NCBI RefSeq assembly: GCF_009913235.1
Contig: NZ_CP047897.1
Span: 1,569,501-1,633,500 of the forward strand
Source of the DNA: Nibribacter ruber
GTDB lineage: Bacteria > Bacteroidota > Bacteroidia > Cytophagales > Hymenobacteraceae
Direction: 5' to 3'
Length of the DNA stretch: 64,000 nucleotides
The number at the start of each line of letters is the position of its first letter. The first letter of the stretch is position 1. Shown in pieces: positions 762 to 63,614 of the stretch. The translations under genes were made by a program, and so were the position numbers. The notes below the pieces were generated by a model, which saw only the letters and a list, made by a program, of their open reading frames with translations, ran no database searches and was not told where the DNA came from.

Positions 762-809
762 AAACCCGTTTTTGGCATCTTTTCTGGAAAAGAGGCCAAA
801 AACGGGTTT
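762..809. repeat. 38-nt palindromic unit, copy 1 (extended)
   Basis: Core 767-804 with arms CGTTTTTGG and CCAAAAACG. The dyad continues outward by AAACC/GGTTT. It lies between two convergent genes. Confidence 0.85.
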
Positions 810-888
810 TGATTTCTACCATGGCGTAAGCGTCCTTCATCAGAAATCAACTGCTTTCAAACTATTGGCAGAAAAATCAAAAAGCAGC

Positions 889-2130
889 CTAAATCACGTC
901 ACTCAGATAGAGCGTGGTTTTGATGGTGGCGGAGTCGCGTTTTACTTGGAGTTTGAGTTTGCGGCCGGGCTTGCTTTGGAACAGGCTCAGGATTTCTTCC
1001 AGGGACTTGGTGGCGCAGTTCACGCCGTCAATGGTGAGCAGGGCATCGCCCTTTATAAGGCCCGCCTTGCTGCTGGCAGAGTTGGGAAGCACATCAGAAA
1101 CAGTGTAGTAATTTAAACCTGGGATGGGCGTGACAATTTCCAGCCCGCTCAGGTTAAAGTAAAACGGCGAGCCGTACTTGTAGTTCTGGGTCAGGAACAT
1201 CTGGCCGTTCTGGTAGTCCATCACCACTTTGAACCGTTGCAGAATGTCGGCGCCCAGGTTGCCATTGCGGTTTTTGAGATTGAGCGCGTGCTGGATGGAG
1301 ATGGAATCTGGGAACGAGGCCGGAGGGCGCTTCAGCAGGAAGCTTCCCAGTTGCAGGCTTTCTACGCGGCCAATGCGACCATGGATTTCACCGTTCAGGC
1401 CGCGGCCCAGGTAAGCTTCAATGTTGGGCTGTGGTATTTTCAGGGCGGCAATGGAAGGCAGGTACAGCAACATGGTCGTGCTCAGGCCACTGTCAATGAC
1501 CAACCGGATGGGGTGCTTTATGCCGTCTTCAGAGGTAATGACCGCTTTCACGTAAGGCTTGGCGTCTTCAATGAAAATGGGCACCCGGCTGGCCTTTTTT
1601 AGCCGTTTCTTGGGGTAGGTGCCGGGTTTGAACAGCGTTAAGACCCGGTTCTGGTAGTCAATCTCAACCACAAAATTTTTAAACAGGGAGTAGCCAATGA
1701 TGCCGTGTATCTCCACCCCCAGCCGCGTAGAAAGGCTGAAGATGTTCTCCATGAGCACCAGCATCTGCTGGCCCTTGGCCTCAATCCCAGAAAAGTGGAT
1801 GCGGTTGCCCGAGGAGTTCATCGCTTTGATGCCTTCGCCCTTGCCTAGGCCGCGCAGACTCAGAGGCCGCACATTGTTAAGGGTAATGGAGTCAAACTTG
1901 CCCAGCTGCGTGAGAAGCGATGTCTCCACGCCCGTATCTACCACAAAATTGAGCGGCTTGGAGTTGTTGATGTTCACCGGAATGACCACCAGGTTGTGCA
2001 CCAGCTTGAACGGGATCTTGACGAAGTTCTTAGAAGCGGGGAATTTAAACTCCTCCACCTCTACCTGTTGGGCAAACGCCGCGGTAGTTGTCAAGAGAAA
2101 CCACAATATCCAGAAATGACGTAACCGCAT
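889..2130 (-). CDS. Secreted retropepsin-like aspartyl protease with C-terminal PDZ domain
   Basis: The protein has two aspartyl-protease half-motifs, VDTGVETS (about residue 64) and IDSGLSTT (about residue 200), each followed by a hydrophobic strand, and a C-terminal PDZ domain (about 330-410) containing SSKAGLIKGDALLTIDG. I start at 2130 because MRLRHFWILWFLLTTTAAFA is a clean signal peptide; an ATG at 2160 would put ten polar residues in front of it. Family members of Bacteroidota with this layout are envelope or periplasmic proteins of unproven substrate. Both half-sites are in one chain, so it need not dimerise as retroviral proteases do. Confidence 0.8.
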   Translation of the reverse strand: MRLRHFWILWFLLTTTAAFAQQVEVEEFKFPASKNFVKIPFKLVHNLVVIPVNINNSKPLNFVVDTGVETSLLTQLGKFDSITLNNVRPLSLRGLGKGEGIKAMNSSGNRIHFSGIEAKGQQMLVLMENIFSLSTRLGVEIHGIIGYSLFKNFVVEIDYQNRVLTLFKPGTYPKKRLKKASRVPIFIEDAKPYVKAVITSEDGIKHPIRLVIDSGLSTTMLLYLPSIAALKIPQPNIEAYLGRGLNGEIHGRIGRVESLQLGSFLLKRPPASFPDSISIQHALNLKNRNGNLGADILQRFKVVMDYQNGQMFLTQNYKYGSPFYFNLSGLEIVTPIPGLNYYTVSDVLPNSASSKAGLIKGDALLTIDGVNCATKSLEEILSLFQSKPGRKLKLQVKRDSATIKTTLYLSDVI

Positions 2131-2315
2131 GAAAATTGATCTCTTTAGACAGGAAGCCATTACTAGCCGACAGGTGTAGTAATATAATCAACTTCTGATT
2201 AATTACATACAAATCTCCCTATATTTATAAACTATGCTACGGCCGTATGTCCGTTTCTAGGGAGCCTGGCTTCCCATCTGGCGCTGTCGGGCCTGGTCAT
2301 CCTTAAAAACCAGAC

Positions 2316-2357
2316 GCCTTTTTTGGGCTGTTTTCTGGAAAACGGGCCAAAAACGGC
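2316..2357. repeat. 38-nt palindromic unit, copy 2
   Basis: Core 2318-2355. The left arm has lost its CG (reads CTTTTTTGGG). Outer GC/GC pair retained. Unusual in lying between divergent genes (2130 minus, 2420 plus), so it cannot be a terminator for either neighbour. Confidence 0.75.
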
Positions 2358-2419
2358 AGCAACAGCAAGCGCCAAAGAAGTTCTTTTGTTAACTTGCTGT
2401 TTTTAAAGAATCTTCTGCC

Positions 2420-2938
2420 ATGAGCGCCGCTATCTACCAACAGTTCCTTTCCCAGGTTTTCTCACAAGAGGCAGCCACTCTGCACACTAGACTCACGCCT
2501 TTATACCAAGAGCTGGAAGAGGCCTTGCAGCAGGCCCGTCCTGGCAGGTTAAGCCAGGAGTTGGTAAGTTTCAAATATGAGCGCCTGCGCCTGGGCATTG
2601 CCATTACCTTGTTGCAGCTGCTCACAGACCTGGGCGGCGACCAGGACAGCGCCGAAGTACGCGACCTGCTGATAGACGCCCTGGACGCGCCCAACGTGCA
2701 GGAGATTGACAAGCGCATCCAGAAAAAAGGTCACCTGTTTGAAGAACTCTACACCGATTTGTACGTGAACGCAGAGGCCGAGCACGTGCTGGCCCTATTT
2801 GAGCGTACCCTGCAAGCCTCGTCTAAAGAAGAAACAGACGAGCTCCTGGAAGAAGCCCTGGAACTAGCTCATGACTTGGAGATTCAGCCCGGCCATGATG
2901 AGGATGAGGACGATGATTCTGAGGGCAACCCTGCGTAA
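2420..2938 (+). CDS. Hypothetical acidic helical protein
   Basis: I do not recognise this 172-residue protein. It has no signal peptide or membrane segment. It is predicted mostly helical by eye (Leu/Glu/Gln-rich heptad-like stretches at 10-75 and 95-150) and ends in a strongly acidic tail of Asp/Glu around residues 158-168. It is 24 nt upstream of a DUF2721 membrane protein on the same strand, which suggests co-transcription. A cytosolic partner or adaptor role is possible but unsupported. Confidence 0.7.
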   Translation: MSAAIYQQFLSQVFSQEAATLHTRLTPLYQELEEALQQARPGRLSQELVSFKYERLRLGIAITLLQLLTDLGGDQDSAEVRDLLIDALDAPNVQEIDKRIQKKGHLFEELYTDLYVNAEAEHVLALFERTLQASSKEETDELLEEALELAHDLEIQPGHDEDEDDDSEGNPA

Positions 2939-2962
2939 CCTGCCGTTGCTTTTCTCACTGCC

Positions 2963-3382
2963 ATGGAGATAACGCTCACCACCCCCGCCCTGCTGTTCCC
3001 GGCTTTGTCTTTGTTGCTGCTGGCGTTCACCAACCGGTTCATGTCTCTGGCCAAGCTCATCAGGGATTTAAAGCACCGGTACCAGACCTCGCACAGCCAT
3101 CTGGTGTTCGGACAAATCCAGAACCTGCGTACGCGGCTCTTCTTGATCAGAAACATGCAGGCCATGGGCATTGCCAGCATGTTCTCCTGCGTGCTGTGCA
3201 TGTTTATGCTGTACAGAGGCTGGCAGACTGCCGGTGAAATCATCTTCGGTGTCAGCCTGGTGCTTTTGATGGTGTCAATGTCCCTCTCCTTCCGGGAAAT
3301 CCAGATTTCTGTAAAGGCGCTTGAACTAGAATTGAGCGACCTGGAGCAGGGAGAAGCCAGCGGACCGTTGGTGCTTCCTTAA
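2963..3382 (+). CDS. DUF2721 family membrane protein
   Basis: The 139-residue protein has a first hydrophobic segment (about 7-27, LLFPALSLLLLAF), a cytosolic basic stretch with LRTRLFLIRNMQAMGI, and two further membrane segments (about 70-90 and 95-115). The pattern TNRFMSLAKLIRDL then LRxRxxLIRxMQ matches my knowledge of DUF2721, a widely spread family of unknown function. It is the second gene of a likely two-gene unit with the acidic protein at 2420. Confidence 0.75.
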   Translation: MEITLTTPALLFPALSLLLLAFTNRFMSLAKLIRDLKHRYQTSHSHLVFGQIQNLRTRLFLIRNMQAMGIASMFSCVLCMFMLYRGWQTAGEIIFGVSLVLLMVSMSLSFREIQISVKALELELSDLEQGEASGPLVLP

Positions 3383-3421
3383 TAATCTGTCCCTGCGCCG
3401 GTTCCTGAAACGGATGCCTGC

Positions 3422-3429
3422 TAAATTTG
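3422..3429 (+). promoter_or_regulatory. Candidate Bacteroidota -7 box (TAAATTTG) upstream of queA
   Basis: It matches TAnnTTTG and ends 28 nt before the queA ATG. No clear TTTG -33 box is seen at the usual spacing. Confidence 0.3.
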
Positions 3430-3457
3430 CCATTACTTTTATCGTTTTACTACGCGC

Positions 3458-4690
3458 ATGAGTGCCTTCCATCCCCGTCAGATTTCCATCTCAGACTATA
3501 CCTATGACCTCCCGGAGGAACGCATAGCCCAGTTTCCGCTGGAGGAAAGGGACCAGTCCCGTCTGTTGCTCTACCAGCAGGGTCGCATTGCAGATGCCCG
3601 GTTTACTGATTTGCCCAACGCGTTGCCGGCCCAATCCTTGTTGGTGTTCAACAATACCAAGGTGGTGCAGGCGCGTCTGCGTTTCCAGAAAGCCACGGGT
3701 GGCATGATTGAGTTGTTCTGTCTGGAGCCGCTGGAGCCCATCAGAGAAGTGCAGCAAGCCATGCAGCAGACGCAATCTGTGGTCTGGAAATGTTTGGTGG
3801 GCAACAACAAGCGCTGGCGCGAAGGCCGTCTGGAAATGCCCCTCGGTCCTTCCCCAGAAAGCGGTGTTCTGAACGCGGAGCGCTTGGCTCCTGCCGAGGA
3901 AGGCTATGCCATCCGGTTCTCCTGGACGCAGGCAGAGCGCACCTTCGCGGAGGTGCTGGAAATTGCCGGTCTTCTGCCGCTGCCTCCGTATATGAACCGC
4001 GATGCCGCCCCAGAAGACCAGAACCGCTACCAGACCGTGTATGCCGCCGCCGCCGGTGCCGTGGCCGCACCTACCGCCGGCCTGCACTTTACGCCGCGGG
4101 TGCTGGAGCAATTGCAACAGCGAAAACACCAAGCGGCGTTTGTGACCCTGCACGTGGGCGCAGGGACATTCAAGCCAGTCAAGTCTGAGGTGATGGAGCA
4201 CCATTACATGCACCCAGAGCAGCTTTCTGTGGATAGAGAGATGGTAGAGCAGCTACTTCGGCATTTGGGCAGACCCGTCATTGCCGTGGGCACCACTTCC
4301 ATGCGCACCCTGGAAAGTCTGTATTGGCTGGGCGTAGGCTTGTCTATGGGTTCCCTGCCCACCGAAGAGGATCAGTTACTAGTGCCGCAATGGCTGCCGT
4401 ATGACCAGCGCACCTCTCTTTCTGTGCAGGAGGCGCTGGAGAGCATTATCCATTATTTAGATCAGCAAGGGCTCACTCACTTACAGGCCACCACCCGTAT
4501 TTTGATTGCCCCCGGCTACCAGTTCAAGCTCTGCACTGGCCTCATCACCAATTTCCACCAGCCTACCAGCACGCTTTTGCTTTTGGTAGCGGCTCTCATC
4601 GGCCCGGCCTGGCAGAAGGTGTACAAGCACGCCCTGGCCAACAACTACCGCTTCTTAAGCTACGGAGACAGCTCTCTGCTACTCCCTTGA
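3458..4690 (+). CDS. queA: S-adenosylmethionine:tRNA ribosyltransferase-isomerase
   Basis: QueA transfers and isomerises the ribosyl group of SAM onto 7-aminomethyl-7-deazaguanine in tRNA, making epoxyqueuosine. The 410-residue protein begins with the typical ISDYTYDLPEERIAQFPLEE, then QSRLL, a VFNNTKVVQARL segment, the GAVAAPTAGLHFT region, HVGAGTFKPV and, near the C-terminus, ITNFHQPTSTLLLLVAA. Residues about 105-150 vary from the usual family, but length is near the bacterial norm allowing for an insertion. A second queuosine-type gene, queD, is at 53.5 kb. The palindrome begins seven bases after the stop codon. Confidence 0.95.
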   Translation: MSAFHPRQISISDYTYDLPEERIAQFPLEERDQSRLLLYQQGRIADARFTDLPNALPAQSLLVFNNTKVVQARLRFQKATGGMIELFCLEPLEPIREVQQAMQQTQSVVWKCLVGNNKRWREGRLEMPLGPSPESGVLNAERLAPAEEGYAIRFSWTQAERTFAEVLEIAGLLPLPPYMNRDAAPEDQNRYQTVYAAAAGAVAAPTAGLHFTPRVLEQLQQRKHQAAFVTLHVGAGTFKPVKSEVMEHHYMHPEQLSVDREMVEQLLRHLGRPVIAVGTTSMRTLESLYWLGVGLSMGSLPTEEDQLLVPQWLPYDQRTSLSVQEALESIIHYLDQQGLTHLQATTRILIAPGYQFKLCTGLITNFHQPTSTLLLLVAALIGPAWQKVYKHALANNYRFLSYGDSSLLLP

Positions 4691-4696
4691 TCCCTT

Positions 4697-4736
4697 TCGT
4701 TTTTGGCCTCTTTGCTAGAAAAGAGGCCAAAAACGA
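4697..4736. repeat. 38-nt palindromic unit, copy 3
   Basis: Core 4698-4735, with CTC/GAG inner pairing (GGCCTCTTT and AAAGAGGCC). It follows the queA stop codon at once, between codirectional genes. Confidence 0.85.
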
Positions 4737-4826
4737 TGTTCTGCCTACGCAAAGGTTTGGTTAAGTTGCCTAATCTGAGTAAGTTCCGTTACGCAAACCT
4801 ACCTTACTAAACCCTAAACAACTTGT

Positions 4827-5792
4827 ATGGCAAACTATTACCCTTCAGAGAAAAACATTGATTTAGAATTTCAGGGAAAAGGCTCCCAGTTATTTGAGAT
4901 CCAGTTGGCCAACTGGGTGCTCACGGCCCTTACCTTAGGTCTCTACTATCCTTGGGCCAAGGCCAATATTCTCCGCTACACTTACGCCAAGACCAAACTG
5001 TCTGGCAGTTCCTTTACGTTTCACGGCACTGGCAAGGAGATGTTCATAGGCTACCTGAAGGTAATGGCCTTGGTAGTGGTCTTCTATGCCTCTCTTTTCT
5101 ATGCCGCATTCACCCAGGACCTGGATTTGATCAACTATGTAGTCTATGGATACCTGGCCGTCTTGGTGGTTTTGATTCCGATGGCTATTCATGGCCGCAT
5201 GCGGTACAGAATGTCCCGCACGTCCTGGAGAGGCATTCATTTTGGCTATCGTGGCAGTTTGAAAGAGCTTTCTCTTATGTTTTACCGTGACATATTCCTG
5301 ACCATCATCACCCTGGGCTTTTACCGGGCATGGCTGGAGGTGAATCTGCGCACTTACATTGTCAACAATTTGAGAATGGGCAATGTGCAGTTCCATTTTC
5401 AGGGCACGGGCGCAGAATTGTTCATGATTCATCTAAAAGGCATGATCCTGTCTGGCCTTACCCTGGGTATTTACCTCTTCTGGTACATGCGCGATCTGCA
5501 CTTGTTCTACCTCAACAACATGCTACTGGAGCAGAACGGCAAATATGTAAGGCTGGATTCTACGGTGTCTGGCTTCGGGTATTTTAAACTGTTGGTAGGC
5601 AACCTGCTGTTGGTCATGTTCACGTTAGGACTAGGATCACCGTGGGCCACTGTGCGCACGCTTAAATTCATTATCAACAACACAGACATCATGGGTGATT
5701 TTGACCCAGACAGCCTGGTACAGACCGAGGAAGAATACAAAGACGCGGTCATGGAAGACATGTCTGACATGATGGACTTAGGCTGGGTATAA
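4827..5792 (+). CDS. YjgN family (DUF898) multi-pass membrane protein
   Basis: The 321-residue protein is built from repeats of one unit in which a membrane segment ends in LTLGxYxxW followed by a basic stretch and then FxFxGTG: LTLGLYYPWAKANILRY, ITLGFYRAWLEVNLRTY, LTLGIYLFWYMRDLHLF and FTLGLGSPWATVRTLKF. This is the DUF898 pattern. It ends with an acidic cytosolic tail. It lies 7 nt before a membrane-anchored M48 protease; the DUF898-M48 pairing recurs in bacteria, so the two probably act together in the membrane, function unknown. Confidence 0.85.
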   Translation: MANYYPSEKNIDLEFQGKGSQLFEIQLANWVLTALTLGLYYPWAKANILRYTYAKTKLSGSSFTFHGTGKEMFIGYLKVMALVVVFYASLFYAAFTQDLDLINYVVYGYLAVLVVLIPMAIHGRMRYRMSRTSWRGIHFGYRGSLKELSLMFYRDIFLTIITLGFYRAWLEVNLRTYIVNNLRMGNVQFHFQGTGAELFMIHLKGMILSGLTLGIYLFWYMRDLHLFYLNNMLLEQNGKYVRLDSTVSGFGYFKLLVGNLLLVMFTLGLGSPWATVRTLKFIINNTDIMGDFDPDSLVQTEEEYKDAVMEDMSDMMDLGWV

Positions 5793-5799
5793 GGAATAG

Positions 5800-6906: not shown

Positions 6907-6946
6907 AAACAAAACCTGGGTTTGGACAACCCTAGAAGTAAGGGCA

Positions 6947-6986
6947 AATAAAAAAGAGGAGGCGTTAGGCCTCCTCTTTTTTATTT
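6947..6986. terminator. Bidirectional intrinsic terminator
   Basis: A hairpin with stem AGAGGAGGC/GCCTCCTCT is flanked by A and T runs on both sides, between the convergent M48 and SusD genes. No 38-nt palindrome is present here. Confidence 0.9.
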
Positions 6987-7008
6987 AAGGGTAAGTTGAG
7001 ATTACAGA

Positions 7009-8385: not shown

Positions 8386-8394
8386 GTCTGAAAA

Positions 8395-15580: not shown

Positions 15581-15624
15581 CTTCATTTTTGGCCTGTTTT
15601 CCGGGAAATAGACCAAAAACGAAG
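15581..15624. repeat. 38-nt palindromic unit, copy 6 (extended)
   Basis: Core 15584-15621, left end CA in place of CG. Outer CTT/AAG pairing extends it. It is downstream of the PIG-L gene stop (minus strand) by about 135 nt. Confidence 0.8.
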
Positions 15625-18719: not shown

Positions 18720-18735
18720 AAAGCCGCTTAAAACC

Positions 18736-18789
18736 ACAACGCCCGTTTTTGGTCTGTTTTCTAGAAAACAGACCAAAAACGGGCGTTGT
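18736..18789. repeat. 38-nt palindromic unit, copy 7: perfect 54-nt palindrome
   Basis: Every base of 18736-18762 pairs with 18763-18789, centred on CTAG. Core 18744-18781 plus a unique outer stem ACAACGCC/GGCGTTGT. It starts 17 nt after one stop codon and ends 22 nt before the opposing one. Confidence 0.95.
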
Positions 18790-18810
18790 GCATATTTCTA
18801 ATGATAGTCC

Positions 18811-19843: not shown

Positions 19844-19885
19844 TTCGTTTTTGGCTTATTTTCCAGAAAACAGGACAAAAACGAA
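19844..19885. repeat. 38-nt palindromic unit, copy 8
   Basis: Core 19846-19883 with TT/AA extension. Downstream (minus strand) of the OmpA gene and directly followed by a separate terminator hairpin. Confidence 0.85.
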
Positions 19886-21422: not shown

Positions 21423-21519
21423 GAACCTGTCAAATCCGCTTACCGCCCATTGGGCCTATAAATGGACAGACACGCTTTCTAACCAGTCATCGATTTTAGC
21501 CTCTTTTTCTTAAAACACC

Positions 21520-21741
21520 ATGAAAACAAAAATCACCGTGAACAGCAACGGCTCTCTCAAAGTAGAAGGCGATTTTATAGTAGTAGACGCCCAGGGCAAC
21601 GAGTACAACCTGCAGGGCCGCGAGGTGGTGTCGTTCTGCCGCTGCGGTCTTTCCAACAACAAACCCTTCTGCGACGGTGCCCACCGTGGTCACTTTGAGC
21701 ACAACGCCGTGGCTTTTGACCTGCCACCAAGGAAAGTATAG
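21520..21741 (+). CDS. CDGSH-type iron-sulfur protein
   Basis: The 73-residue protein carries the complete [2Fe-2S] ligand set of the mitoNEET/CDGSH family: Cys40 and Cys42 in FCRCGLS, Cys51 and His55 in FCDGAH. The N-terminal half is a beta-rich cap; no membrane anchor is present. These proteins are involved in redox or Fe-S cluster handling; small bacterial members are cytosolic. It is followed by a cluster of 7-nt repeats and then the APC permease. Confidence 0.92.
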   Translation: MKTKITVNSNGSLKVEGDFIVVDAQGNEYNLQGREVVSFCRCGLSNNKPFCDGAHRGHFEHNAVAFDLPPRKV

Positions 21742-23359: not shown

Positions 23360-23380
23360 CGCCGCTACCTTCTATTTTAA

Positions 23381-23440
23381 GAACCGCCCTTCGTTTTTGG
23401 CTTGTTTTCTACAAAACAGACCAAAAACGAAGGGCGGTTC
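23381..23440. repeat. 38-nt palindromic unit, copy 9 (60-nt extended dyad)
   Basis: Core 23392-23429 with an 11-bp perfect outer stem GAACCGCCCTT/AAGGGCGGTTC followed by TTTT. It acts plausibly as the permease gene's terminator. Confidence 0.9.
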
Positions 23441-23557
23441 TTTTATACTATCTCCTTCTAGACCAACGCTGCCTTCTTTCCTGAGGGCCGTATAGCGCTG
23501 GCAATCAAACTTTCAGTATTTTAGAAACTCCAAACCTACTCTACAAACAACCTCTAT

Positions 23558-25501: not shown

Positions 25502-25539
25502 CGTTTTTTGCCTGTTTTCCTCAAAAGCCCCGAAAAACG
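25502..25539. repeat. 38-nt palindromic unit, copy 10 (degenerate)
   Basis: Begins one base after the barrel gene stop. The right half (AGCCCCGAAAAACG) has diverged and is shared with the left side of the terminator at 25523-25554. Confidence 0.6.
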
Positions 25540-27494: not shown

Positions 27495-27557
27495 AAAACA
27501 GGAGGCGTTTTTGGCTTGTTTCTGAGAAAACAGCCCAAAAACGCCTCCTGTTTTTTT
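27495..27557. repeat. 38-nt palindromic unit, copy 11 (60-nt extended, T-tailed)
   Basis: Core 27506-27543; outer stem AAAACAGGAGG/CCTCCTGTTTT, then three more Ts. The clearest case where the palindrome has all the parts of an intrinsic terminator. It follows the hydrolase stop by 13 nt. Confidence 0.9.
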
Positions 27558-29021: not shown

Positions 29022-29067
29022 AGGTCGTTTTTGGCTTATTTTCTGAAAAACAGGCCAAAAACGACCT
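29022..29067. repeat. 38-nt palindromic unit, copy 12
   Basis: Core 29026-29063, outer AGGT/ACCT. It occupies the whole gap between convergent genes and its last bases overlap the stop codon (minus strand) of the STAS-like gene. Confidence 0.9.
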
Positions 29068-32056: not shown

Positions 32057-32094
32057 CGTTTTTGGGCTGTTTTCTGGAAAAGAGGCGAAAAACG
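32057..32094. repeat. 38-nt palindromic unit, copy 13
   Basis: Arms CGTTTTTGGGC and GGCGAAAAACG. Nine bases past the MOSC gene stop (minus strand). Confidence 0.85.
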
Positions 32095-35046: not shown

Positions 35047-35087
35047 TTCGTTTTTGCTTGTTTTCACCAAAACAGGCTAAAAACGAA
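35047..35087. repeat. 38-nt palindromic unit, copy 14 (37-nt core)
   Basis: Core 35049-35085, one base short of the usual length; outer TT/AA. Adjoins the separate terminator. Confidence 0.8.
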
Positions 35088-37846: not shown

Positions 37847-37897
37847 ATTCTTTATTTGCTATGCAGAAAAATTAAAACGTCCCACTTTAGAGAAACC

Positions 37898-37934
37898 AAT
37901 TTTTGCCTGTTTTCCAGAAAATAGCCCAAAAACG
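37898..37934. repeat. 38-nt palindromic unit, copy 15 (37-nt)
   Basis: The left end has decayed (AATTTTTGCC) while the right arm ends CCCAAAAACG. An outer inverted pair GTCCCA / TGGGAC with AACCAAT / ATTGGTT lies 15-30 nt away on each side, so a larger, interrupted stem is possible. Confidence 0.7.
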
Positions 37935-38769: not shown

Positions 38770-38807
38770 GCAAAAAACGCCCCTCAGGACTGAGGGGCGT
38801 TTTTTGC
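38770..38807. terminator. Bidirectional terminator overlapping palindrome copy 16
   Basis: Perfect stem GCAAAAAACGCCCCTCA/TGAGGGGCGTTTTTTGC with a 4-nt loop, starting a base after the DUF4184 stop. Its right arm doubles as the left arm of palindrome 16. Confidence 0.9.
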
Positions 38808-38835
38808 TAGTTTTCTGGGAAATAGCCCAAAAACG
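38798..38835. repeat. 38-nt palindromic unit, copy 16
   Basis: Left arm CGTTTTTTGC is shared with the terminator, so the two hairpins exclude each other. Two bases from the M13 gene stop. Confidence 0.8.
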
Positions 38836-41043: not shown

Positions 41044-41081
41044 CGTTTTTAGCCTGTTTTTCAGGAATTAGCCCTAAAAGG
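41044..41081. repeat. 38-nt palindromic unit, copy 17 (degenerate)
   Basis: CGTTTTTAGCC left, CCCTAAAAGG right. It overlaps the last codons of the YihY gene (stop at 41074). Confidence 0.6.
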
Positions 41082-42032: not shown

Positions 42033-42070
42033 CGTTTTTAGGCTGATTTCTGGAAAATACGGCAAAAACG
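42033..42070. repeat. 38-nt palindromic unit, copy 18
   Basis: CGTTTTTAGGC and CGGCAAAAACG arms. One base beyond the stop of the gene at 42072 and 24 nt upstream of the YihY start. Confidence 0.8.
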
Positions 42071-49595: not shown

Positions 49596-49633
49596 CGTTT
49601 TTAGGCTATTTCCAAGAAAACAACCCAAAAACG
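49596..49633. repeat. 38-nt palindromic unit, copy 19
   Basis: CGTTTTTAGGC and ACCCAAAAACG arms, 21 nt after the TolC stop and just before a separate terminator. Confidence 0.8.
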
Positions 49634-50226: not shown

Positions 50227-50838
50227 TTAAAAATCTCCTAGTTCTTGCTGCAGCCAGCGCTCCAGCTGTTGCAATACCGTTTGCAGCGGTCCTGAGTCAT
50301 TGTAGGCTTTCCCTAACAGGATACCCCCTTCTACCGTGGCCACCACAAACGTGGCAATGTGCTGCGCATTGGCCGCTGAGGCGAAAACACCCTGCGCCTG
50401 ACCCAGTTCAATGAGTTTGTACACGCCCTTGTGCAATCGGTTCAGCACCACTACCACGCGCGCATGCAAGGCCGGCTGGTTGTCATCTGCCTCTACCACC
50501 GTGTTGAGCACGGGGCAGCCACCCGCCAGAATTGGATGGGACAGGTACGTACGGTAAAAGTCAAGGAGGGCTCTTAGGCGGTTGCTGGCCAAGTCATGCG
50601 GCGCCATGGCCTCGCCCAACCGGTCAATGATGATTTGCGCAGCATATTCAAAAGCCTCTACTGCCAGTTCTTCTTTACTGGCAAAATGCCCATACAAGCA
50701 GCCCTTGGTCACGCCTGTGGCCTCTATCAAGTCCTGGTACGAGGTGCCAGCAAAGCCCTTTTGGTTAAACAACACTGCTGCCTGCTCTATGATGTGCTGG
50801 CGGGTTTGTTCTGCTTTGGGGGTTAATGGCGCTTTCAT
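50227..50838 (-). CDS. TetR/AcrR family transcriptional regulator
   Basis: The start at 50838 (MKAPLTPKAEQTRQHIIEQA) is preferred since the longer form from 50874 would run through the likely operator. The HTH is seen in NQKGFAGTSYQDLIEATGVTKGCLYGHFASKEEL (quoted in part: GVTKGCLYGHFASKEEL). The C-terminal ligand domain has family VLNTVVEADDNQPA, as in the AcuR/TetR_C_33-like group. It may regulate the adjacent thioesterase and/or the efflux operon; the sequence only shows a candidate self-operator. Confidence 0.92.
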   Translation of the reverse strand: MKAPLTPKAEQTRQHIIEQAAVLFNQKGFAGTSYQDLIEATGVTKGCLYGHFASKEELAVEAFEYAAQIIIDRLGEAMAPHDLASNRLRALLDFYRTYLSHPILAGGCPVLNTVVEADDNQPALHARVVVVLNRLHKGVYKLIELGQAQGVFASAANAQHIATFVVATVEGGILLGKAYNDSGPLQTVLQQLERWLQQELGDF

Positions 50839-51389: not shown

Positions 51390-51393
51390 CCTT

Positions 51394-51431
51394 CATTTTT
51401 GGGCTGATTTCTGGGAAATAGGCTAAAAACG
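51394..51431. repeat. 38-nt palindromic unit, copy 20
   Basis: CATTTTTGGGC and GGCTAAAAACG arms. It is 5' of a gene and not after a stop codon, an exception to the rule. Confidence 0.8.
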
Positions 51432-53926: not shown

Positions 53927-53939
53927 GGCAGCTCATAAA

Positions 53940-54001
53940 ATAAATCCCGTCCGTTTTTGGGTTGTTTTCCAGAAAACAGGCCAAAAACGGACGGGATTTA
54001 T
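53940..54001. repeat. 38-nt palindromic unit, copy 21 (62-nt extended dyad)
   Basis: Core 53952-53989 with a perfect 12-bp outer stem ATAAATCCCGTC/GACGGGATTTAT. It is 13 nt after the queD stop, between convergent genes. Confidence 0.92.
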
Positions 54002-55253: not shown

Positions 55254-56103
55254 GTGTACGAGTGTATCCTATATGCCCATTAAAGGCAAGCAGTTTGCCT
55301 ACTCCCTATACAGCCGCTTCGTTTCTGGCTCTTTAGCAAGTCAAGATAAGGTCTACCAAAAGGAGGCAGCGCCAACACCATCACTTTGAAAAAAATGCCA
55401 CTATTACCGTAATTGCTGCAGACAAAGCAGCCATTACCAGCTAAAATCTTCCTGGGCTCAACGGCATACGCTTGGCTAATTACCTAAATAAAACTTTTAC
55501 AACAAACCTTCTTTCGCTTTTCATACTTAATTACAAGTTTTATAAAACAAAATACACCTCAAAACACCTATCACCCTATAATTTTGGATTGCAATACAAA
55601 TCATTCAGTTTATATACTTGCATTTTAACCACATCCACTTATCACCGCCTTTACTATGTCATGAAAGCTAGGCACCCAGCCTTTTACCACCTTCCATACT
55701 GGTTGCATCCAATTTTAATAATCCATACTGCGCTAATGTAAACTACAGAAGCAAAACTAACCAGAGACCATCTTCTCGTTTTTGGCCTATTTTCAGCAAA
55801 ACATGCTAAAAACGCACGTACCAGTTATAACTGATACTATTGATTGAAAGGCAGAATGCAACACATGAAAGAAATCAATTTTAAAGCCCCTATTAGACAA
55901 ATTACCGCATTCACTCTATGAATTTGCCTATTAATTGCACTTAGTGGTTTTTGTATTTGACACTTCAAACAATTACCAATTAGGGCAATGCATTATGAAC
56001 TAATCTAGCTAGCTTTACATTTCACTACATTAACTATTACCTATATCGGATTCCATACTTTTACTTTTATCTCTCATTAGTATCCAATTTTTAATACCAG
56101 AGA
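55254..56103. other. 850-nt AT-rich divergent intergenic region
   Basis: A large gap between divergent signalling genes, markedly more AT-rich than the rest of the window. It contains palindrome copy 22 at 55777-55814. The ORF at 55472-55741 (89 residues, Tyr/Lys/Phe/Leu-rich) follows the base composition and I do not accept it as a gene. Confidence 0.5.
55777..55814. repeat. 38-nt palindromic unit, copy 22
   Basis: CGTTTTTGGCC and TGCTAAAAACG arms, in the middle of the AT-rich region, more than 280 nt from either gene. Confidence 0.8.
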
Positions 56104-56436: not shown

Positions 56437-56616
56437 TTCCAGCATTTGCCTGGAAACCTGCCCGCCAGAAGGACTACCTGTTTGACAGAACATCATTATG
56501 AAACTTGAATTACCCTATAGCAATTAAGCGGCTAATTTTTACCTTGTATGGCACTACTTACTTGCTTTACCCATATCAAACATTTTATACTACTTTTTTC
56601 ATAACCAAGTACCTAC

Positions 56617-58824: not shown

Positions 58825-58830
58825 CCTGAT

Positions 58831-59214: not shown

Positions 59215-59360
59215 AGCTTTGCTTCTTTACTAGGTACCATTGTCCAATGATGAAGGCAGTCGTTCTTTCTGGGGAGGATTCGTGAACGCCTGCGCGCCGT
59301 CTTTAAAATAACAATGGACGTTCTCATTGGGGACGGCACCTACCTGACTGGTGTAAAACA

Positions 59361-59394
59361 AGAAAGCCCCGTTGTTTCCAACGAGGCTTTTGTT
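59361..59394 (-). terminator. Terminator of the tRNA-Ser gene
   Basis: On the minus strand a stem AAAGCC-CGTTG / CAACG-GGCTTT immediately follows the tRNA 3' end, with a T-run. Confidence 0.7.
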
Positions 59395-59395
59395 G

Positions 59396-59480
59396 CAGAG
59401 AGAGAGGGATTCGAACCCCCGGACCCGCAAAGGTCAACGGTTTTCAAGACCGCCGCATTCGACCACTCTGCCATCTCTCT
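59396..59480 (-). tRNA. tRNA-Ser (anticodon TGA)
   Basis: The minus strand folds as a class II tRNA of 85 nt: acceptor AGAGAGA/TCTCTCT, D-loop with AGTGGTCGAATG, anticodon arm GGTCT-TGAAA-ACC giving anticodon TGA, a long variable arm (GTTGACCTTTGCGGGTC region) and T-arm GGGGGTTCGAATCCCTC. The CCA end is not encoded. It sits alone between convergent protein genes. Confidence 0.93.
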
Positions 59481-59560
59481 AAATGTGATACAAAAGTAAG
59501 CCTTGCACCGGTATGAGTCAAGAGCTAGACAAAAAAAATCTCACTTTTTTACGTACCACC

Positions 59561-61384
59561 TCACTTTTTAAGCCGCAACAAGAGTCTGCCCTGCAGATTG
59601 CTCAAGTAAAACTTGCCCTTCTTTTTCTCGGCCTGGAGGCTGGTAATTTGCAGCGCCCAGGCCACCCGCTCTCCTTCCTCCCTGAAGAACAACTCGTTAG
59701 CCGGCAATTGCCTGGGCGCACCATATTGTTTGGCTTGTCCTTTGTGCACCTGCACTAGGCTGTCCAATGAAAAACGCGCGGTCTCCTGCCTAAACATAAA
59801 CTGCACTTCATTGGCCTTCTCGGTCACCACCATCTTGAGAACTTCCTGCCCAATTTTAAATTCTTCCTCCCGTTGGTCTCTTATGAAGGAGTAATCGTCT
59901 AAGCTGACCAGGTAGTCATAGCCTTGAATGAGCTGCACTTCTGCTTTGTTGGCATTGAGAGAGAAATAATTGGCATCCATCGCCTCGGTGCCCTGGGGCA
60001 TACGCGTGTATTCCAGTCCCATGAGGGCCAGCACATCAGTGGTGAACGGTGCGCGTAATCCATATTGGGGCCTGTCTTCAAACAAGGAGTCCAAGGGGGC
60101 GCCAAACCAGGACCGCACAGAGGCGTATTGGTGCATCTCGCCTAGGTATTCTACAATGGAGGTGATCTCAGCGGCCGCTGAATCTGGAACGGGGGTCTTC
60201 ACTTTCTGTACCTGGCCGTTTACCAGCAATTGGTGGCGGGTCATGATCGTTTCCAACCGGCTGGTCTGGCTGCGCTGCGAGACGGAGAACGCGCCCCAGG
60301 GCCCAAAAGCGGCTAGAAAGGCAATGGCACCCAAAGTCATGGGAATGAACTTGATGTTTTTCTGCCGGCTCCACAAAAAGTACACGGCCACCGCCAACAA
60401 CCAAAGCGCCAGTGCCAGCACAATGTACCTTTTCTCCGTGATGCCATAGTCGCGCACGCGGCGCCAGATAGCCAGCAGCAGGAGAATCAGAAGCGGAAAC
60501 AGGGCCCGGTAAAACCATTTGGCGAAGGTCCTGATCCAGCGGTTGCCTTCTGTCTCCCGCACGGGATGAATCAACAGCAAGGAGAAAATGCCTGCCGTAG
60601 AGAAGCCCAGCACCAGGTAGCTCACCCAGCCGCGCGGCCATTCCCACTGCACCAGAATTTTGCCCATGTACGCGTACAAAATCACCAGGTATAGGGTCAC
60701 CAACGGCAGGAGCACAAACTGCGTGAACAGCTTTAAGCCTTTGGGGTAATCAGTGACGCGCTCCAGGTCATTGGGGTTGGGCACGCCAGCCAAGAAGAAC
60801 CAGGTATTGAAAACGCCCACCATGAAGATCCACAGCCTAGAATATACCTTAGAGCTGATTTCTATGTCAAACAGTTGGTCAAAGGCCAGAATAGCCAGCA
60901 CCAGCCCTAAATACAGCACGGCAGAATAGAGCGCCGCCGTGAGCAGCCGCAGGAAAAGGCTTTTGTTGAACTGCCAGAAACCGTTTTCTATGCCTCGGTT
61001 CAGGAAGGCGGCAAAGGAAGCCGCCAGGTGCAGGGCAATCATCAGGAGCATGTACCGCATGACCTCTTTAAAGGCAGGCTCCGGCGGCAGAAACAGATAA
61101 TACCCCGTTAACAGCGCAACTCCCAGCGCCATGAGCAACCAGCGCAGCCTGGGGTGGTTGCCCTTTCTTTCTGAGTACAACTCCAGCACGAAGAACAGTA
61201 TCAACCCCAGCGCCGAGACGATGGCCAGCTTAGGCAGAATGCTCTCCTGCCGGCTATTCCGTTCTATGATGAGCCAAACCACGGTGGTGCCCGTAAGGGC
61301 AGACAACAGCGTGAACGGAAAGCGCAGGAAGGTCTGGTACGCGGCTAAGGCAATTTCTTTGAGGGGCAAACGGGGCAGGGCCAT
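59561..61384 (-). CDS. DUF4153 family membrane protein
   Basis: The start is the ATG at 61384 (MALPRLPLKEIALAAYQTFL); in-frame extension to 61429 merely translates palindrome copy 23. The N-terminal 400 residues contain roughly ten to twelve membrane helices, including WLLMALGVALLTGYYLFL and VTLYLVILYAYMGKILVQW. The C-terminal 200 residues are soluble with a PDSAAAEITSIVEYL motif. DUF4153 proteins have unknown function. It starts 57 nt downstream of the YihY stop. Confidence 0.85.
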   Translation of the reverse strand: MALPRLPLKEIALAAYQTFLRFPFTLLSALTGTTVVWLIIERNSRQESILPKLAIVSALGLILFFVLELYSERKGNHPRLRWLLMALGVALLTGYYLFLPPEPAFKEVMRYMLLMIALHLAASFAAFLNRGIENGFWQFNKSLFLRLLTAALYSAVLYLGLVLAILAFDQLFDIEISSKVYSRLWIFMVGVFNTWFFLAGVPNPNDLERVTDYPKGLKLFTQFVLLPLVTLYLVILYAYMGKILVQWEWPRGWVSYLVLGFSTAGIFSLLLIHPVRETEGNRWIRTFAKWFYRALFPLLILLLLAIWRRVRDYGITEKRYIVLALALWLLAVAVYFLWSRQKNIKFIPMTLGAIAFLAAFGPWGAFSVSQRSQTSRLETIMTRHQLLVNGQVQKVKTPVPDSAAAEITSIVEYLGEMHQYASVRSWFGAPLDSLFEDRPQYGLRAPFTTDVLALMGLEYTRMPQGTEAMDANYFSLNANKAEVQLIQGYDYLVSLDDYSFIRDQREEEFKIGQEVLKMVVTEKANEVQFMFRQETARFSLDSLVQVHKGQAKQYGAPRQLPANELFFREEGERVAWALQITSLQAEKKKGKFYLSNLQGRLLLRLKK

Positions 61385-61396
61385 GCAGGGAAAATC

Positions 61397-61434
61397 TGTT
61401 TTTGCCCTGATTTCAGGAAAATAGCCCAAAAACG
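61397..61434. repeat. 38-nt palindromic unit, copy 23
   Basis: TGTTTTTGCCC and GCCCAAAAACG arms; left CG replaced by TG. Seven bases past the YihY stop (minus strand) and 12 nt before the DUF4153 start. Confidence 0.75.
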
Positions 61435-61441
61435 CAAATCC

Positions 61442-62371
61442 CTAGCGTTTCTCTTTCTCCAGCCGCTTGGTAATGGTGTCAATGCTGATGTTCACCTCAA
61501 AGCCCAGAATGAGGATCATGCAGACAAAGTCCAGCCAGATCATCAGACCAATGAGGGCGCCAATGGAGCCGTAGAACTTGTTGTAGGTATCAAACTTACT
61601 GATGTAGAGCGAGAACAGCATGGACACCAGAAAGATGAGCAACGTGGCCACCACAGAACCCGCGCTCACAAACGGCCACTTGTCATGAATGGCCGGCACG
61701 TAGTAATAAATCATGGACGTGGCCAGGAAGAACAGCAGAATCACGGCCACGTATTTGAGCACCACAATCAAGGTATAGGTAAAAGACTCTGTGACGATCT
61801 CATAGAACACCAGAATGTCCAGAATGTACGTCCCGAAGAAGATGGCACTGATACTGATGAGCAAGATCACCGCCAGGGCCACAGTCAACAAAGTGGCAAT
61901 CACGCGCTTGCGCAGATAGGTCCTGCGTCTAAAGGTCTTGTATTTCTTATCAAAGGCGTCCATGAGGCTCATGATGCCGTTGGTGGACAAGACCAGCGCA
62001 AACAGAAAACCGAAGGAAAGCAAGCCCCCGCGCGGCGTGTTCACAATGTCTTCAATGGTCTCGGCGGCAGCCAGGTAAATCTCCTGGGGCATCACGTCGC
62101 CTAAAAACTGCAGAATGTCCTGGTCCAGGTGCCCTACCGGAATGTAGGGAATGAGCGTAAACAAAAAGATGATGGTAGGAAAGATGGCCAGCGTAAAGTT
62201 GAACGCCATATATGATGCCCGCTTGGTGAGAGAGTCCAGCTTGAGCTCGTCTATCATCACCTTGATGACATGGTAGACGCTTACCCTGCCCTCCATAAAG
62301 CGCAGTTGCTTTAAGAAGACGATGAACCTGCGGTAAGGTCTGGATCTGAGAACGGTCTGGGACAGGTTCAT
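61442..62371 (-). CDS. YihY/virulence factor BrkB family membrane protein (second copy)
   Basis: The 309-residue protein has six membrane helices and the family segments RASYMAFNFTLAIFPTIIF, NGIMSLMDAFDKKY then RTYLRKR, and YGSIGALIGLMIWLDFVC. It is only distantly like the one at 41074. It begins two bases after the stop of the thioesterase gene, so the two are co-transcribed. Function is unsettled. Confidence 0.9.
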   Translation of the reverse strand: MNLSQTVLRSRPYRRFIVFLKQLRFMEGRVSVYHVIKVMIDELKLDSLTKRASYMAFNFTLAIFPTIIFLFTLIPYIPVGHLDQDILQFLGDVMPQEIYLAAAETIEDIVNTPRGGLLSFGFLFALVLSTNGIMSLMDAFDKKYKTFRRRTYLRKRVIATLLTVALAVILLISISAIFFGTYILDILVFYEIVTESFTYTLIVVLKYVAVILLFFLATSMIYYYVPAIHDKWPFVSAGSVVATLLIFLVSMLFSLYISKFDTYNKFYGSIGALIGLMIWLDFVCMILILGFEVNISIDTITKRLEKEKR

Positions 62372-62373
62372 GC

Positions 62374-62781
62374 TTAAAAATGTCCGTCCAGTTTCGCGTG
62401 AATCCCCTCTGGGATGGCCGTGGGCCTGCCGGTTTTCATGTCCACGAACACCATGGTGGTCTCCCCTATGTTCAGGAGCTCCTGCGCCTCATTGTAGACC
62501 TCGTACTCAAACTTGATGCGCGTGCCCTTGGGCTTTTCCTTGACCAGCAGTTTGATGGTGAGCATGTCATCATAGCGTGCCGGACGTATGTACTTGCAAC
62601 GCATCTCCAGCACGGGCATCATCACGCCGTCGGCCTCCATCTCTTTGTAATGGATGCCCAGCCGCCGGAACGTCTCGGTGCGGGCTACTTCATAATACGC
62701 GCCGTAGTTGCCATAGTAGACGTAGCCCATCTGGTCGGTCTCGGCGTAGCGCACCCTTATCTGTACCTCTGATTCAAACAC
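62374..62781 (-). CDS. YbgC/FadM-type acyl-CoA thioesterase
   Basis: The 135-residue hotdog protein shows RVRYAETDQMGYVYYGNYGAYYEVARTE (in part AETDQMGYVYYGNY), with the catalytic Asp, then RRLGIHYKEMEADGV and VFVDMKTGRP. The start codon is GTG at 62781 (FESEVQIRV follows). No upstream ATG is available. It hydrolyses acyl-CoA, likely supporting lipid metabolism; its fusion into an operon with YihY is a minor oddity. Confidence 0.9.
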   Translation of the reverse strand: MFESEVQIRVRYAETDQMGYVYYGNYGAYYEVARTETFRRLGIHYKEMEADGVMMPVLEMRCKYIRPARYDDMLTIKLLVKEKPKGTRIKFEYEVYNEAQELLNIGETTMVFVDMKTGRPTAIPEGIHAKLDGHF

Positions 62782-62812
62782 GTTCCTGTCTTCTTAAGCG
62801 GTGAGTTACTGT

Positions 62813-62852
62813 CCGTTTTTAGCATGTTTTGGGTAAAACTGCCCAAAAACGG
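62813..62852. repeat. 38-nt palindromic unit, copy 24
   Basis: Core 62814-62851; CGTTTTTAGC and GCCCAAAAACG arms, C/G extension. In the 118-nt gap between two minus-strand genes. Confidence 0.85.
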
Positions 62853-62899
62853 GGTTGGTGATTACAAGTATACTAGAAAGAATGGAAATGCGATATTGT

Positions 62900-63547
62900 T
62901 TACTGGAACCTATGCGGGTTGGCGGGCAATTCTTCCTTTGGGTTATAGGCGGCCTTCAAGAGGCGGGCATATTCTTCTACCGTCTCTGAGAACCCGATGG
63001 TTTTGCGCCGCTCGTTCACTTTCTCTGGGTTTTCAATGGGCCAGATGGCCATAGTCCCGTCTTTAGTGACCATTGTGTTGGCCTGGGTGCCGTAGATTTG
63101 TTTTTTGCCCTGGAACATGAGCAACCGGTCTTCCATCATGGCAGCCAAGGTCTTGCTGGCCTCGCCTTCTTGCGCCAGTTTCTTCATCTGCGGAAGGTAG
63201 GTTTCAATCACCTTCAGGGGCGAATGCTGGATGACGAAGAAAATGCCTTCGGCGGCCTTCTGCCCTACCTTGCTCTGCGGCAGCCAACCGTACTGCTTTA
63301 AGATGGTGAGCACTTTGGCCTGGTTCACAGAATCTACTTTTTGCATTTTCTGAAAGAACGCATTTCTATCCTCTTCCTTCACCTCAGAAAATCCCTCACG
63401 CACGGCCTGGTCAGAATCTAGTATCTGCTCCAACTCCACCCGCAACACCTCATACGGAATCTGTTTTTCTGACTTGGTCTGGGCACACCCGGCGCTCACT
63501 AGCAACACGCCTACACAAAACAAAAACGCACGGTAAAGATGCTGCAT
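62900..63547 (-). CDS. DUF6624 family lipoprotein
   Basis: A lipobox VSAGC is near residue 20. The family core has SDQAVRE, YGWLPQSKVGQKAAEGIFFVIQH (in part), and then LAAMMEDRLLMFQGKKQIYGTQ, the region typical of DUF6624 (DR-x-L-x-x-x-G-x-x-Q-x-YGTQ). No enzymatic role is known. It is downstream of the MltG gene on the same strand, across palindrome 25. Confidence 0.82.
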   Translation of the reverse strand: MQHLYRAFLFCVGVLLVSAGCAQTKSEKQIPYEVLRVELEQILDSDQAVREGFSEVKEEDRNAFFQKMQKVDSVNQAKVLTILKQYGWLPQSKVGQKAAEGIFFVIQHSPLKVIETYLPQMKKLAQEGEASKTLAAMMEDRLLMFQGKKQIYGTQANTMVTKDGTMAIWPIENPEKVNERRKTIGFSETVEEYARLLKAAYNPKEELPANPHRFQ

Positions 63548-63575
63548 GCAAATGGGTTTGAAGGAAACAAAAAAT

Positions 63576-63614
63576 CCGTTTTGGGCTGTTTTCCAGAAAA
63601 CAGCCCAAAAACGG
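63576..63614. repeat. 38-nt palindromic unit, copy 25
   Basis: Core 63577-63613, one T short in the left arm. Inner stem GGGCTGTTTTC/GAAAACAGCCC is perfect. Nine bases after the MltG stop. Confidence 0.9.

What the first reader, a model, noticed from the sequence alone, without database searches (positions are those of the whole stretch)
762..63614. A 25-copy family of fixed-length (38-nt) intergenic near-palindromes
Reading the gaps between genes shows about 25 copies of one unit, roughly one per 2.6 kb. The ends are nearly invariant (CGTTTTTGG...CCAAAAACG), the middle keeps TTTTC...GAAAA, and the interior varies. Nearly every copy is exactly 38 nt from CG to CG; three are 37. No copy lies inside a confident coding region beyond the last codons of a gene. 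Fixed ends and length with diverged interiors suggest either a mobile REP-like unit moved by an unseen enzyme or a structural element under length selection. I know of no described element with this consensus; that is recall, not a search.
Basis: partly seen in the sequence, partly recalled or inferred. Interest (0 to 1): 0.88.

Follow-up and report, generated by a model that had tools for sequence, protein, structure and literature searches.

The report
Genus-wide 38-bp DNA site at gene ends
Bacteria of the genus Rufibacter carry a 38-letter, two-fold symmetric DNA word between their genes, roughly 400 to 1,800 times per genome, kept in place between close relatives and written in a local dialect in some species, which suggests that an unknown protein reads it on the double helix.

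Summary
The window holds 26 copies, its genome (a Rufibacter, named by syntenic relatives) about 1,600. All 16 genus genomes carry 399-1,794 copies; 23 outgroup genomes have 0-24, like the reversed control.

Recent mobility is not supported for this genome: its relative G007 agrees in 39 of 39 comparable window gaps. An older REP-like origin stays open. RAYT linkage depends on the distance cut-off (inconclusive), and two species hold more identical copies.

The element is constrained position by position. In 64 G000/G007 pairs, positions 4-6 and 15-16 are 97-100% identical, against 65-80% for the variable positions and flanks. In this genome the halves vary independently, and G-U is not preferred over A-C on the transcribed strand (168 vs 167). 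I read it as a duplex-DNA protein site made of four GTTTT-like boxes in mirror order. In other species the outer positions and flanks do covary. Dialects differ between species, even at orthologous spots. A minority (44 of 265 in transcribed gaps) sits in intrinsic-terminator stems. An island-like region and a plasmid-like contig carry few copies.

Most likely it is the site of an unidentified chromosomal DNA-binding protein marking gene ends; protein and role are inferred. A DNA-uptake mark is less likely: a type IV pilus platform family is missing.

The parts
767..804 (.). 38-bp element, convergent gap
   Evidence: G007 orthologue
2318..2355 (.). 38-bp element, divergent gap
4698..4735 (.). 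38-bp element, 7 nt after a stop codon
12685..12722 (.). 38-bp element, directly after a stop codon
15292..15329 (.). 38-bp element
15584..15621 (.). 38-bp element, same gap as the previous one (G007 has one copy in this gap)
18735..18743 (.). left arm of a 9-bp stem abutting the element at 18744 (terminator-like)
   Evidence: stem sequence differs but pairing is kept in G007 and G013
18744..18781 (.). 38-bp element inside a terminator-like hairpin, convergent gap
18782..18790 (.). right arm of the stem around 18744-18781
19846..19883 (.). 38-bp element; copies in the same gap of G007, G013 and R. roseus
21491..21528 (.). weak copy, overlaps a called gene start by 9 nt; copy in G007
23379..23391 (.). 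left arm of a 13-bp stem abutting the element at 23392
23392..23429 (.). 38-bp element inside a terminator-like hairpin followed by a T-tract
23430..23442 (.). right arm of the stem around 23392-23429
25502..25539 (.). degenerate 38-bp element 1 nt after a stop codon; found in G007, not in G013 or R. roseus
27495..27505 (.). left arm of an 11-bp stem abutting the element at 27506
27506..27543 (.). 38-bp element inside a terminator-like hairpin followed by a T-tract
27544..27554 (.). right arm of the stem around 27506-27543
29026..29063 (.). 38-bp element, convergent gap of 51 bp
32057..32094 (.). 38-bp element
35048..35085 (.). element one base short (37-nt reading 35049-35085), convergent gap
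37897..37934 (.). 38-bp element with a degenerate left end
38798..38835 (.). 38-bp element 2 nt beyond a stop codon
41044..41081 (.). 38-bp element overlapping the end of the minus-strand gene at 41074; same place in G007 and, in its own dialect, in G013
42033..42070 (.). 38-bp element
49596..49633 (.). 38-bp element
51394..51431 (.). 38-bp element, divergent gap
53940..53951 (.). left arm of a 12-bp stem abutting the element at 53952
53952..53989 (.). 38-bp element inside a terminator-like hairpin, convergent gap
53990..54001 (.). right arm of the stem around 53952-53989
55777..55814 (.). 38-bp element
61397..61434 (.). 38-bp element
62814..62851 (.). 38-bp element
63576..63613 (.). 38-bp element (or 37 nt from 63577)

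Best explanation
It is a genus-wide set of recognition sites on duplex DNA for a sequence-specific, two-fold symmetric DNA-binding protein that has not been identified. Each half-site carries two GTTTT-like boxes about one helical turn apart (positions 2-6 and 13-17, mirrored at 22-26 and 33-37), so a dimer with two contact modules per subunit, or a tetramer, would fit. Shown by sequence: position-specific constraint with independent halves in this genome; near-complete retention between G000 and G007; species dialects; scarcity on an island-like region and a plasmid-like contig. Inferred: that a protein binds, and that its job is chromosomal (boundary or architecture at gene ends). About one site in six in transcribed gaps also sits on an intrinsic-terminator stem; I take that as a secondary use.
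For: Two-fold symmetric, position-specific conservation in 315 G000 copies, with pairing close to independence at the interior pairs and below it at 13:26 and the centre. On the transcribed strand of 186 co-directional copies, pairs 1-17, G-U 168 and A-C 167. G000/G007 pairs (64 gapless): identity 0.97-1.00 at positions 4-6 and 15-16, 0.87-0.95 at 1-3, 7, 9 and 12, 0.65-0.80 at 8, 10, 11, 13, 14 and 17-19, 0.68-0.80 in flanks. Retention: 85 of 89 mapped copies, 39 of 39 window gaps. 399-1,794 copies in 16 of 16 genus genomes (reversed control 0-6), 0-24 in 23 others (control 0-21). Dialects, including one spot at a gene end. 47 of 196 co-directional copies start 0-9 nt after a stop; convergent gaps 71 of 93 occupied, co-directional 167 of 341, divergent 43 of 102. 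539 half-sites in full elements, 0 isolated, in 864 kb.
Against: No binding protein found; the one nucleoid family tested (HU, PF00216) is not genus-specific. In 598 copies pooled from 13 other genomes positions 1 and 6-8 and the flanks covary (z 3 to 7), though 10-18 do not, and G-U 460 against A-C 402 is borderline (p 0.052). Identical nearest neighbours: 7 of 26 in G005, 8 of 52 in G013, 4 of 78 in G000. G013 agrees with G000 in 15 of 22 gaps (both 5, neither 10, one only 7), so sites are gained and lost over longer times. Y1 genes may be flanked more often than chance at 300-500 bp, which favours a REP-like origin. 43 divergent gaps, which have no gene end, are occupied.
Confidence: 0.47

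Rival explanations
1. A relic or slow form of a REP-like mobile palindrome that spread into gene ends and terminators at the base of the genus, perhaps through RAYT-type enzymes, with lineage bursts in G005 and G013.
For: Short, extragenic, high copy, genus-specific. Y1 loci have sites on both sides in 5, 6 and 8 of 15 within 300, 400 and 500 bp against 23, 25 and 26 of 200 genes (P 0.022, 0.007, below 0.001); 11 sites within 700 bp of 8 Y1 matches against 5.8 expected from local density; 4 of 5 usable loci both-sided against 1.8 expected with gap length allowed for (P 0.06). Consensus-like copies sit more often between paired flanks (run of 5 or more: 27% of the top quintile, 0% of the bottom in G000; G005 0.69 of the top half against 0; not significant in G007, G009, G014). 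More identical copies in G005 and G013. G013-only copies in 4 of 22 gaps.
Against: No clean empty site between G000 and G007: of 4 missing copies two fall in one larger deletion and one is opposite a 42-nt element-like stretch. Within 250 bp Y1 linkage is not above chance (3 of 15, P 0.17), genes with both gaps of 150 bp or more are both-sided in 34 of 106 anyway, and G007 has 0 Y1 matches but 1,342 copies. None of 10 copies in 100 kb of G013 contig C2 has the G013 dialect. Neutral relics would not keep core positions at 97-100%.
Confidence: 0.22
2. A DNA-uptake or self-recognition mark, working like the DNA uptake sequence of Neisseriaceae: marked DNA is preferentially taken in, and repeated recombination spreads and homogenises the species dialect.
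For: Species dialects, hundreds to thousands of copies, positional retention, terminator association of a subset, few copies on an island-like region and on G013 contig C2, where they lack the host dialect; ComEC family in 16 of 16 genus genomes. Neisseriaceae dialects and terminator-associated inverted pairs: PMC3630211, passages.
Against: The type IV pilus/type II platform family T2SSF has no match in 16 of 16 genus genomes. The mark is a 38-bp palindrome, not a short oriented word, and is rare inside genes (10 of 315). ComEC is also in 8 of 9 non-genus relatives.
Confidence: 0.17
3. An RNA hairpin, that is an intrinsic terminator or 3'-end stabiliser, acting in the transcript.
For: 44 of 265 copies in transcribed gaps (1 of 40 in divergent gaps) have flank stems of 4 bp or more, followed by T-tracts (4.28 of 9 against 2.67, p 1.4e-10). 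At 18720-18810 three species keep pairing with different stems. Outer positions covary outside G000. Copies lie near stop codons.
Against: No covariation at positions 10-18 in 315 + 598 copies; no G-U preference in G000. T-tract after the element 36 of 147 and 28 of 126 (co, conv) against 21% at random positions, and classical terminators are not replaced (40 of 147 and 57 of 126 with, 44 of 198 and 22 of 64 without).
Confidence: 0.1

Closest known systems
REP sequences (GTAG- and CGTC-tagged superfamilies, RAYT systems; PMC3733652, passages)
   Same: Short (20-40 bp) palindromes, extragenic, up to thousands of copies, lineage-specific consensus; RAYT-type genes occur in 15 of 16 genomes of the genus
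   Different: No one-sided GTAG or CGTC tag seen, symmetric to the edge, RAYT linkage inconclusive, position-specific constraint with independent halves, near-complete positional retention between G000 and G007
DNA uptake sequence dialects of Neisseriaceae (PMC3630211, passages)
   Same: Species dialects, very high copy number, association with terminators, foreign-dialect copies on transferred DNA
   Different: 38 bp and self-symmetric rather than a short oriented word, nearly all intergenic, T2SSF platform absent, no uptake data
Intrinsic terminators
   Same: About one in six copies in transcribed gaps sits on a stem with a T-tract
   Different: Most copies have neither paired flanks nor a T-tract; inner half not selected for pairing
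Sites of chromosome-organising proteins such as MatP or Noc (recalled)
   Same: Symmetric duplex sites dispersed on the chromosome
   Different: As recalled those sites are shorter and far fewer; I did not search for this comparison

Membership tests
REP/RAYT | 20-40 bp palindrome, high copy, extragenic | tested here: met
REP/RAYT | unpaired terminal GTAG or CGTC tag | tested here: not met
   conserved edge is symmetric YCG...CGR, no one-sided tag; untagged REP-like families are known to exist
REP/RAYT | flanks a Y1/RAYT gene | tested here: inconclusive
   both sides in 3 of 15 loci within 250 bp (P 0.17), 5 to 8 of 15 within 300-500 bp (P 0.022 to below 0.001), 34 of 106 genes with roomy gaps; G007 has 0 Y1 matches
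REP/RAYT | head-to-head or tail-to-tail dimers (REPIN) | not tested
   window gaps mostly hold one copy, but dimers were not searched for
DNA uptake sequence | abundant word with species dialects | tested here: met
DNA uptake sequence | short oriented word, also common inside genes | tested here: not met
   0 isolated half-sites; 10 of 315 inside genes
DNA uptake sequence | type IV pilus-based receptor and uptake | tested here: not met
   T2SSF in 0 of 16 genus genomes; other uptake routes not tested
DNA uptake sequence | biased uptake of marked DNA | not testable with these tools
   needs a transformation assay
Intrinsic terminator | stem followed by T-tract | tested here: not met
   met only by a subset (44 of 265 with flank stems); overall T-tract rate near random
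Intrinsic terminator | compensatory pairing in the stem | tested here: inconclusive
   present in flanks and, outside G000, at 1 and 6-8; absent at 10-18
Duplex DNA-binding site of a dimeric protein | mirror-symmetric, position-specific conservation with independent halves | tested here: met
   for G000; only partly so in other species (outer positions covary)
Duplex DNA-binding site of a dimeric protein | a protein that binds it | not testable with these tools
   only HU was looked at, as a family

The most novel reading that the evidence does not exclude
A bacterial genus in which an unknown protein reads a 38-bp duplex code at, in the denser genomes, roughly every second gene boundary, with sites retained one by one between close relatives and the code rewritten into species dialects at orthologous positions: either a gene-boundary (insulator-like) system or a self-DNA mark that works without a type IV pilus.
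Probability: 0.38. Interest if true: 0.85.

Novelty: new variant of a known kind. Interest (0 to 1): 0.62.

Why it matters
High-copy bacterial palindromes are usually put down to mobile REPs or RNA hairpins. Here sequence statistics separate three layers: duplex-type constraint in the inner half, terminator use in a minority, and drift of the consensus between species. If a protein is found, Rufibacter would give a test case for how a DNA-binding protein and over a thousand sites change specificity together, and what a bacterium gains by marking its gene ends.

Tried and rejected
Rfam scan of the window at gathering scores: only a tRNA. HU as a clue to the binder: one strong copy in each genus genome, weak second matches in G005, G007 and G013, no genus-specific paralogue. 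Half-site-flanked parent element: no isolated half-site in 864 kb, about a fifth of the genome. Viral contigs: strict pattern 0. Plasmid collection with one 251-bp query: only weak matches, none covering 80% of it. Regular spacing: region A not different from a gap-based null; region B irregular because of site-free stretches. A similar-looking repeat in G025 of another family: part of a repeat conserved over more than 80 bp, in 1 of 118 order genomes, judged unrelated. Roadblock termination: not preferred, because many sites start within 10 nt of the stop codon and, with a polymerase footprint of about 18 nt (recalled), a hard block would stop transcripts before the stop codon. The G006 stretch 2940001-3000000 gave no comparable gaps.

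Rows dropped and limits: rows as told in the observation check. In one search, 13 of 102 copies could not be mapped. In one search, 64 of the 89 mapped pairs were gapless and used. In some searches only 5 of 15 relative stretches gave comparable gaps, and the 43 rows are gap-relative pairs, some G000 gaps counted with two relatives, so the Fisher p is too small. In one search G000 and G013 contig C2 were left out by design. In one search only 5 of 15 Y1 loci had a called gene with neighbours. Copies were selected on positions 1-9 and 30-38, which inflates conservation there. Gene calls are from my own script, not a published caller. R. roseus gaps are the same as.

For that reason the REP-like rival went from 0.17 to 0.22, the best explanation from 0.50 to 0.47, and the novel case from 0.40 to 0.38. 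One search was this report sent in a wrong format and not filed.

Literature: searches. Rufibacter with 'repeat' gave 13 papers, seen as a listing only, none with a title about repeats in that genus; Rufibacter with 'genome' and 'intergenic' gave 0. I read passages only, of PMC3733652, PMC6006769 and PMC3630211. That nothing is in print rests on these searches alone.


Full report
WHAT IS THERE. The window holds 26 copies of the element; the exact-arm form occurs 8 times against 0 in shuffles. The window's genome has 4,352,178 bases in one contig; the strict core occurs 700 times there against 2 for the reversed control, and a four-box pattern with up to one mismatch 1,632 times against 2. In the window plus 800 kb of the same genome I collected 315 copies of exactly 38 bp with at most 3 mismatches in the 18 arm positions; among rows with at most 2 arm mismatches, lengths 33-43 scanned, 278 of 292 are 38 bp. 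Syntenic loci name the genus: the best matches of the window's amidohydrolase are in six Rufibacter genomes and Sabulibacter ruber. By equal contig length G004 is R. hautae, G008 R. roseus and G015 R. glacialis.

WHO HAS IT. With the four-box pattern all 16 genomes of the genus carry 399 to 1,794 copies (reversed control 0-6), and 23 genomes outside the genus carry 0 to 24 (reversed control 0-21). With a sequence-only model 16 of 16 genus genomes match at least 84 times, the count being capped at 150. In a family-wide sample 45 of 46 non-genus genomes have no match at E 1e-4 and one has two.

ANATOMY. The extended consensus is Y-CGTTTTTGGCCTGTTTTC-NN-GAAAACAGGCCAAAAACG-R. Four GTTTT-like boxes stand at positions 2-6, 13-17, 22-26 and 33-37, in mirror order, about one helical turn apart within each half. 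Positions 15, 16, 23 and 24, which were not used to select copies, are 97-99% conserved, while position 13 is 55%. The central dinucleotide is mostly CA or TG, in part because CTAG is rare in this genome. All 539 good half-sites lie in full elements; none is isolated in the 864 kb.

THE INNER HALF IS NOT SELECTED AS RNA. In 315 G000 copies Watson-Crick pairing across the dyad is close to what independent columns give (for example pair 10:29 0.467 against 0.480) and is lower at 13:26 and at the centre. In 186 co-directional copies read in the direction of transcription, G-U and A-C combinations at pairs 1-17 are equal, 168 and 167. In 598 copies pooled from 13 other genomes there is again no covariation at positions 10-18, but there is at positions 1 and 6-8 and in the flanks (z 3 to 7), and G-U 460 against A-C 402 is borderline, p 0.052. 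So the inner half looks like a duplex DNA site, while the outer edge also takes part in something paired.

THE TERMINATOR SUBSET. Bases just outside the element pair above expectation in co-directional and convergent gaps. Copies with a flank stem of 4 bp or more are 44 of 265 in transcribed gaps and 1 of 40 in divergent gaps, and T-tracts follow these stems (mean 4.28 T in 9 against 2.67, p 1.4e-10). In the gap 18720-18810, G000, G007 and G013 each have the element on top of a stem although the stem sequences differ. Overall, however, T-tracts follow the element at 36 of 147 co-directional and 28 of 126 convergent gene ends against 21% at random positions, and classical terminators are not rarer where the element is present (40 of 147 and 57 of 126 with, 44 of 198 and 22 of 64 without). 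Terminator use looks real but secondary.

KEPT IN PLACE. G007 is syntenic with the window at about 79% nucleotide identity and with part of region B at about 83%. In the window 39 of 39 comparable gaps agree: 19 occupied in both, 20 empty in both; two gaps hold two copies in G000 and one in G007. Of 102 G000 copies examined, 89 could be mapped and 85 have a copy in the aligned G007 segment. In 64 gapless pairs positions 4-6 and 15-16 are 0.97-1.00 identical, positions 1-3, 7, 9 and 12 are 0.87-0.95, positions 8, 10, 11, 13, 14 and 17-19 are 0.65-0.80, flanks 0.68-0.80. Over five more distant relatives 17 gap-relative pairs are occupied in both, 3 only in G000, 4 only in the relative, 19 in neither (Fisher p 1.2e-5, pairs not fully independent). 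Of these, R. roseus gives both 4, G000 only 1, neither 7. Retention fades with distance: G013 in the window gives both 5, G000 only 3, G013 only 4, neither 10.

DIALECTS. Species differ in consensus, for example G013 CGTTTTCGGGCTCATTTC and G005 CGTTTAGGGGCTGTTTTT, while T4, T5, T15 and T16 stay at 0.90 or more in the sampled chromosomes. The change is seen at orthologous spots: the element at the end of the minus-strand gene at 41074 reaches 8 nt into the gene with its stop codon in G000, and 5 nt from the end of the protein match (stop codon not counted) in G007 and G013, that is the same place, and in G013 it has the G013 dialect. G004, G009, G014 and G015 have much more diverged copies. Identical nearest neighbours are 7 of 26 in G005, 8 of 52 in G013 and 4 of 78 in G000, a point for a burst or a homogenising process in the first two.

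WHERE IT SITS. In G000 71 of 93 convergent, 167 of 341 co-directional and 43 of 102 divergent gaps of at least 45 bp are occupied; 47 of 196 co-directional copies start 0-9 nt after the stop codon. In 315 copies 10 lie inside called genes. Two stretches of 42 and 38 kb in region B are site-free (GC 0.463 and 0.509, region 0.504); ten proteins sampled from that 87-kb region include a multicopper oxidase, RND efflux parts, a P-type ATPase and a serine recombinase, which suggests an acquired island. In the 100 kb fetched of the 155-kb contig C2 of G013 there are 8-10 copies, against 52 in 100 kb of its main contig, and none of the 10 printed has the G013 dialect.

THE REP QUESTION. Y1/RAYT-type genes occur in 15 of 16 genomes but not in G007. 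Around 15 of them sites stand on both sides within 250 bp in 3 (19 of 200 genes of like size, P 0.17), within 300, 400 and 500 bp in 5, 6 and 8 (P 0.022, 0.007 and below 0.001). Around 8 Y1 matches 11 sites lie within 700 bp against 5.8 expected. Genes of that size with both gaps of 150 bp or more are both-sided in 34 of 106, and with gap length allowed for 4 of 5 usable Y1 loci are both-sided against 1.8 expected (P 0.06). I count this as inconclusive, leaning towards a weak association. It leaves a REP-like origin open without making the element mobile today.

WHAT REMAINS. The uptake-sequence comparison is close in behaviour (PMC3630211, passages), but T2SSF has no match in 16 of 16 genus genomes. 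My best reading is a site for an unidentified chromosomal DNA-binding protein; the protein, and a role at gene boundaries, are inference. That most sites are retained one by one between G000 and G007 speaks for a local role or for a biased replacement process rather than for a redundant pool of sites.

Noticed in passing
L233-L250 (G025, another family of the order): A different repeat family, conserved over more than 80 bp, whose core TTTTGCCAGTTWTTTGACAAAATAGGCTAAAA occurs 56-57 times in one genome and in none of 117 others searched.
   Followed up: partly
G000 C1:2630146-2717532 (L039-L043): An island-like region with very few copies of the element, with metal-resistance and efflux genes and a serine recombinase.
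   Followed up: partly
G013 contig C2 (L205-L209) position 50653 and G000 C1 about 2672404: The element at these two places has similar flanks, and the copy on the G013 contig keeps a G000-like dialect, as if carried by horizontal transfer.
   Followed up: no
G049 (a non-Rufibacter genome of the family): Two matches to the sequence model at E down to 2e-10, the only ones among 46 non-genus family genomes.
   Followed up: no
genus-wide, loci: Y1 transposase-like genes, mostly about 180-200 aa, are present in 15 of 16 Rufibacter genomes (1 to 6 matches each) but not in G007; their flanking by the 38-mer is cut-off dependent.
   Followed up: partly
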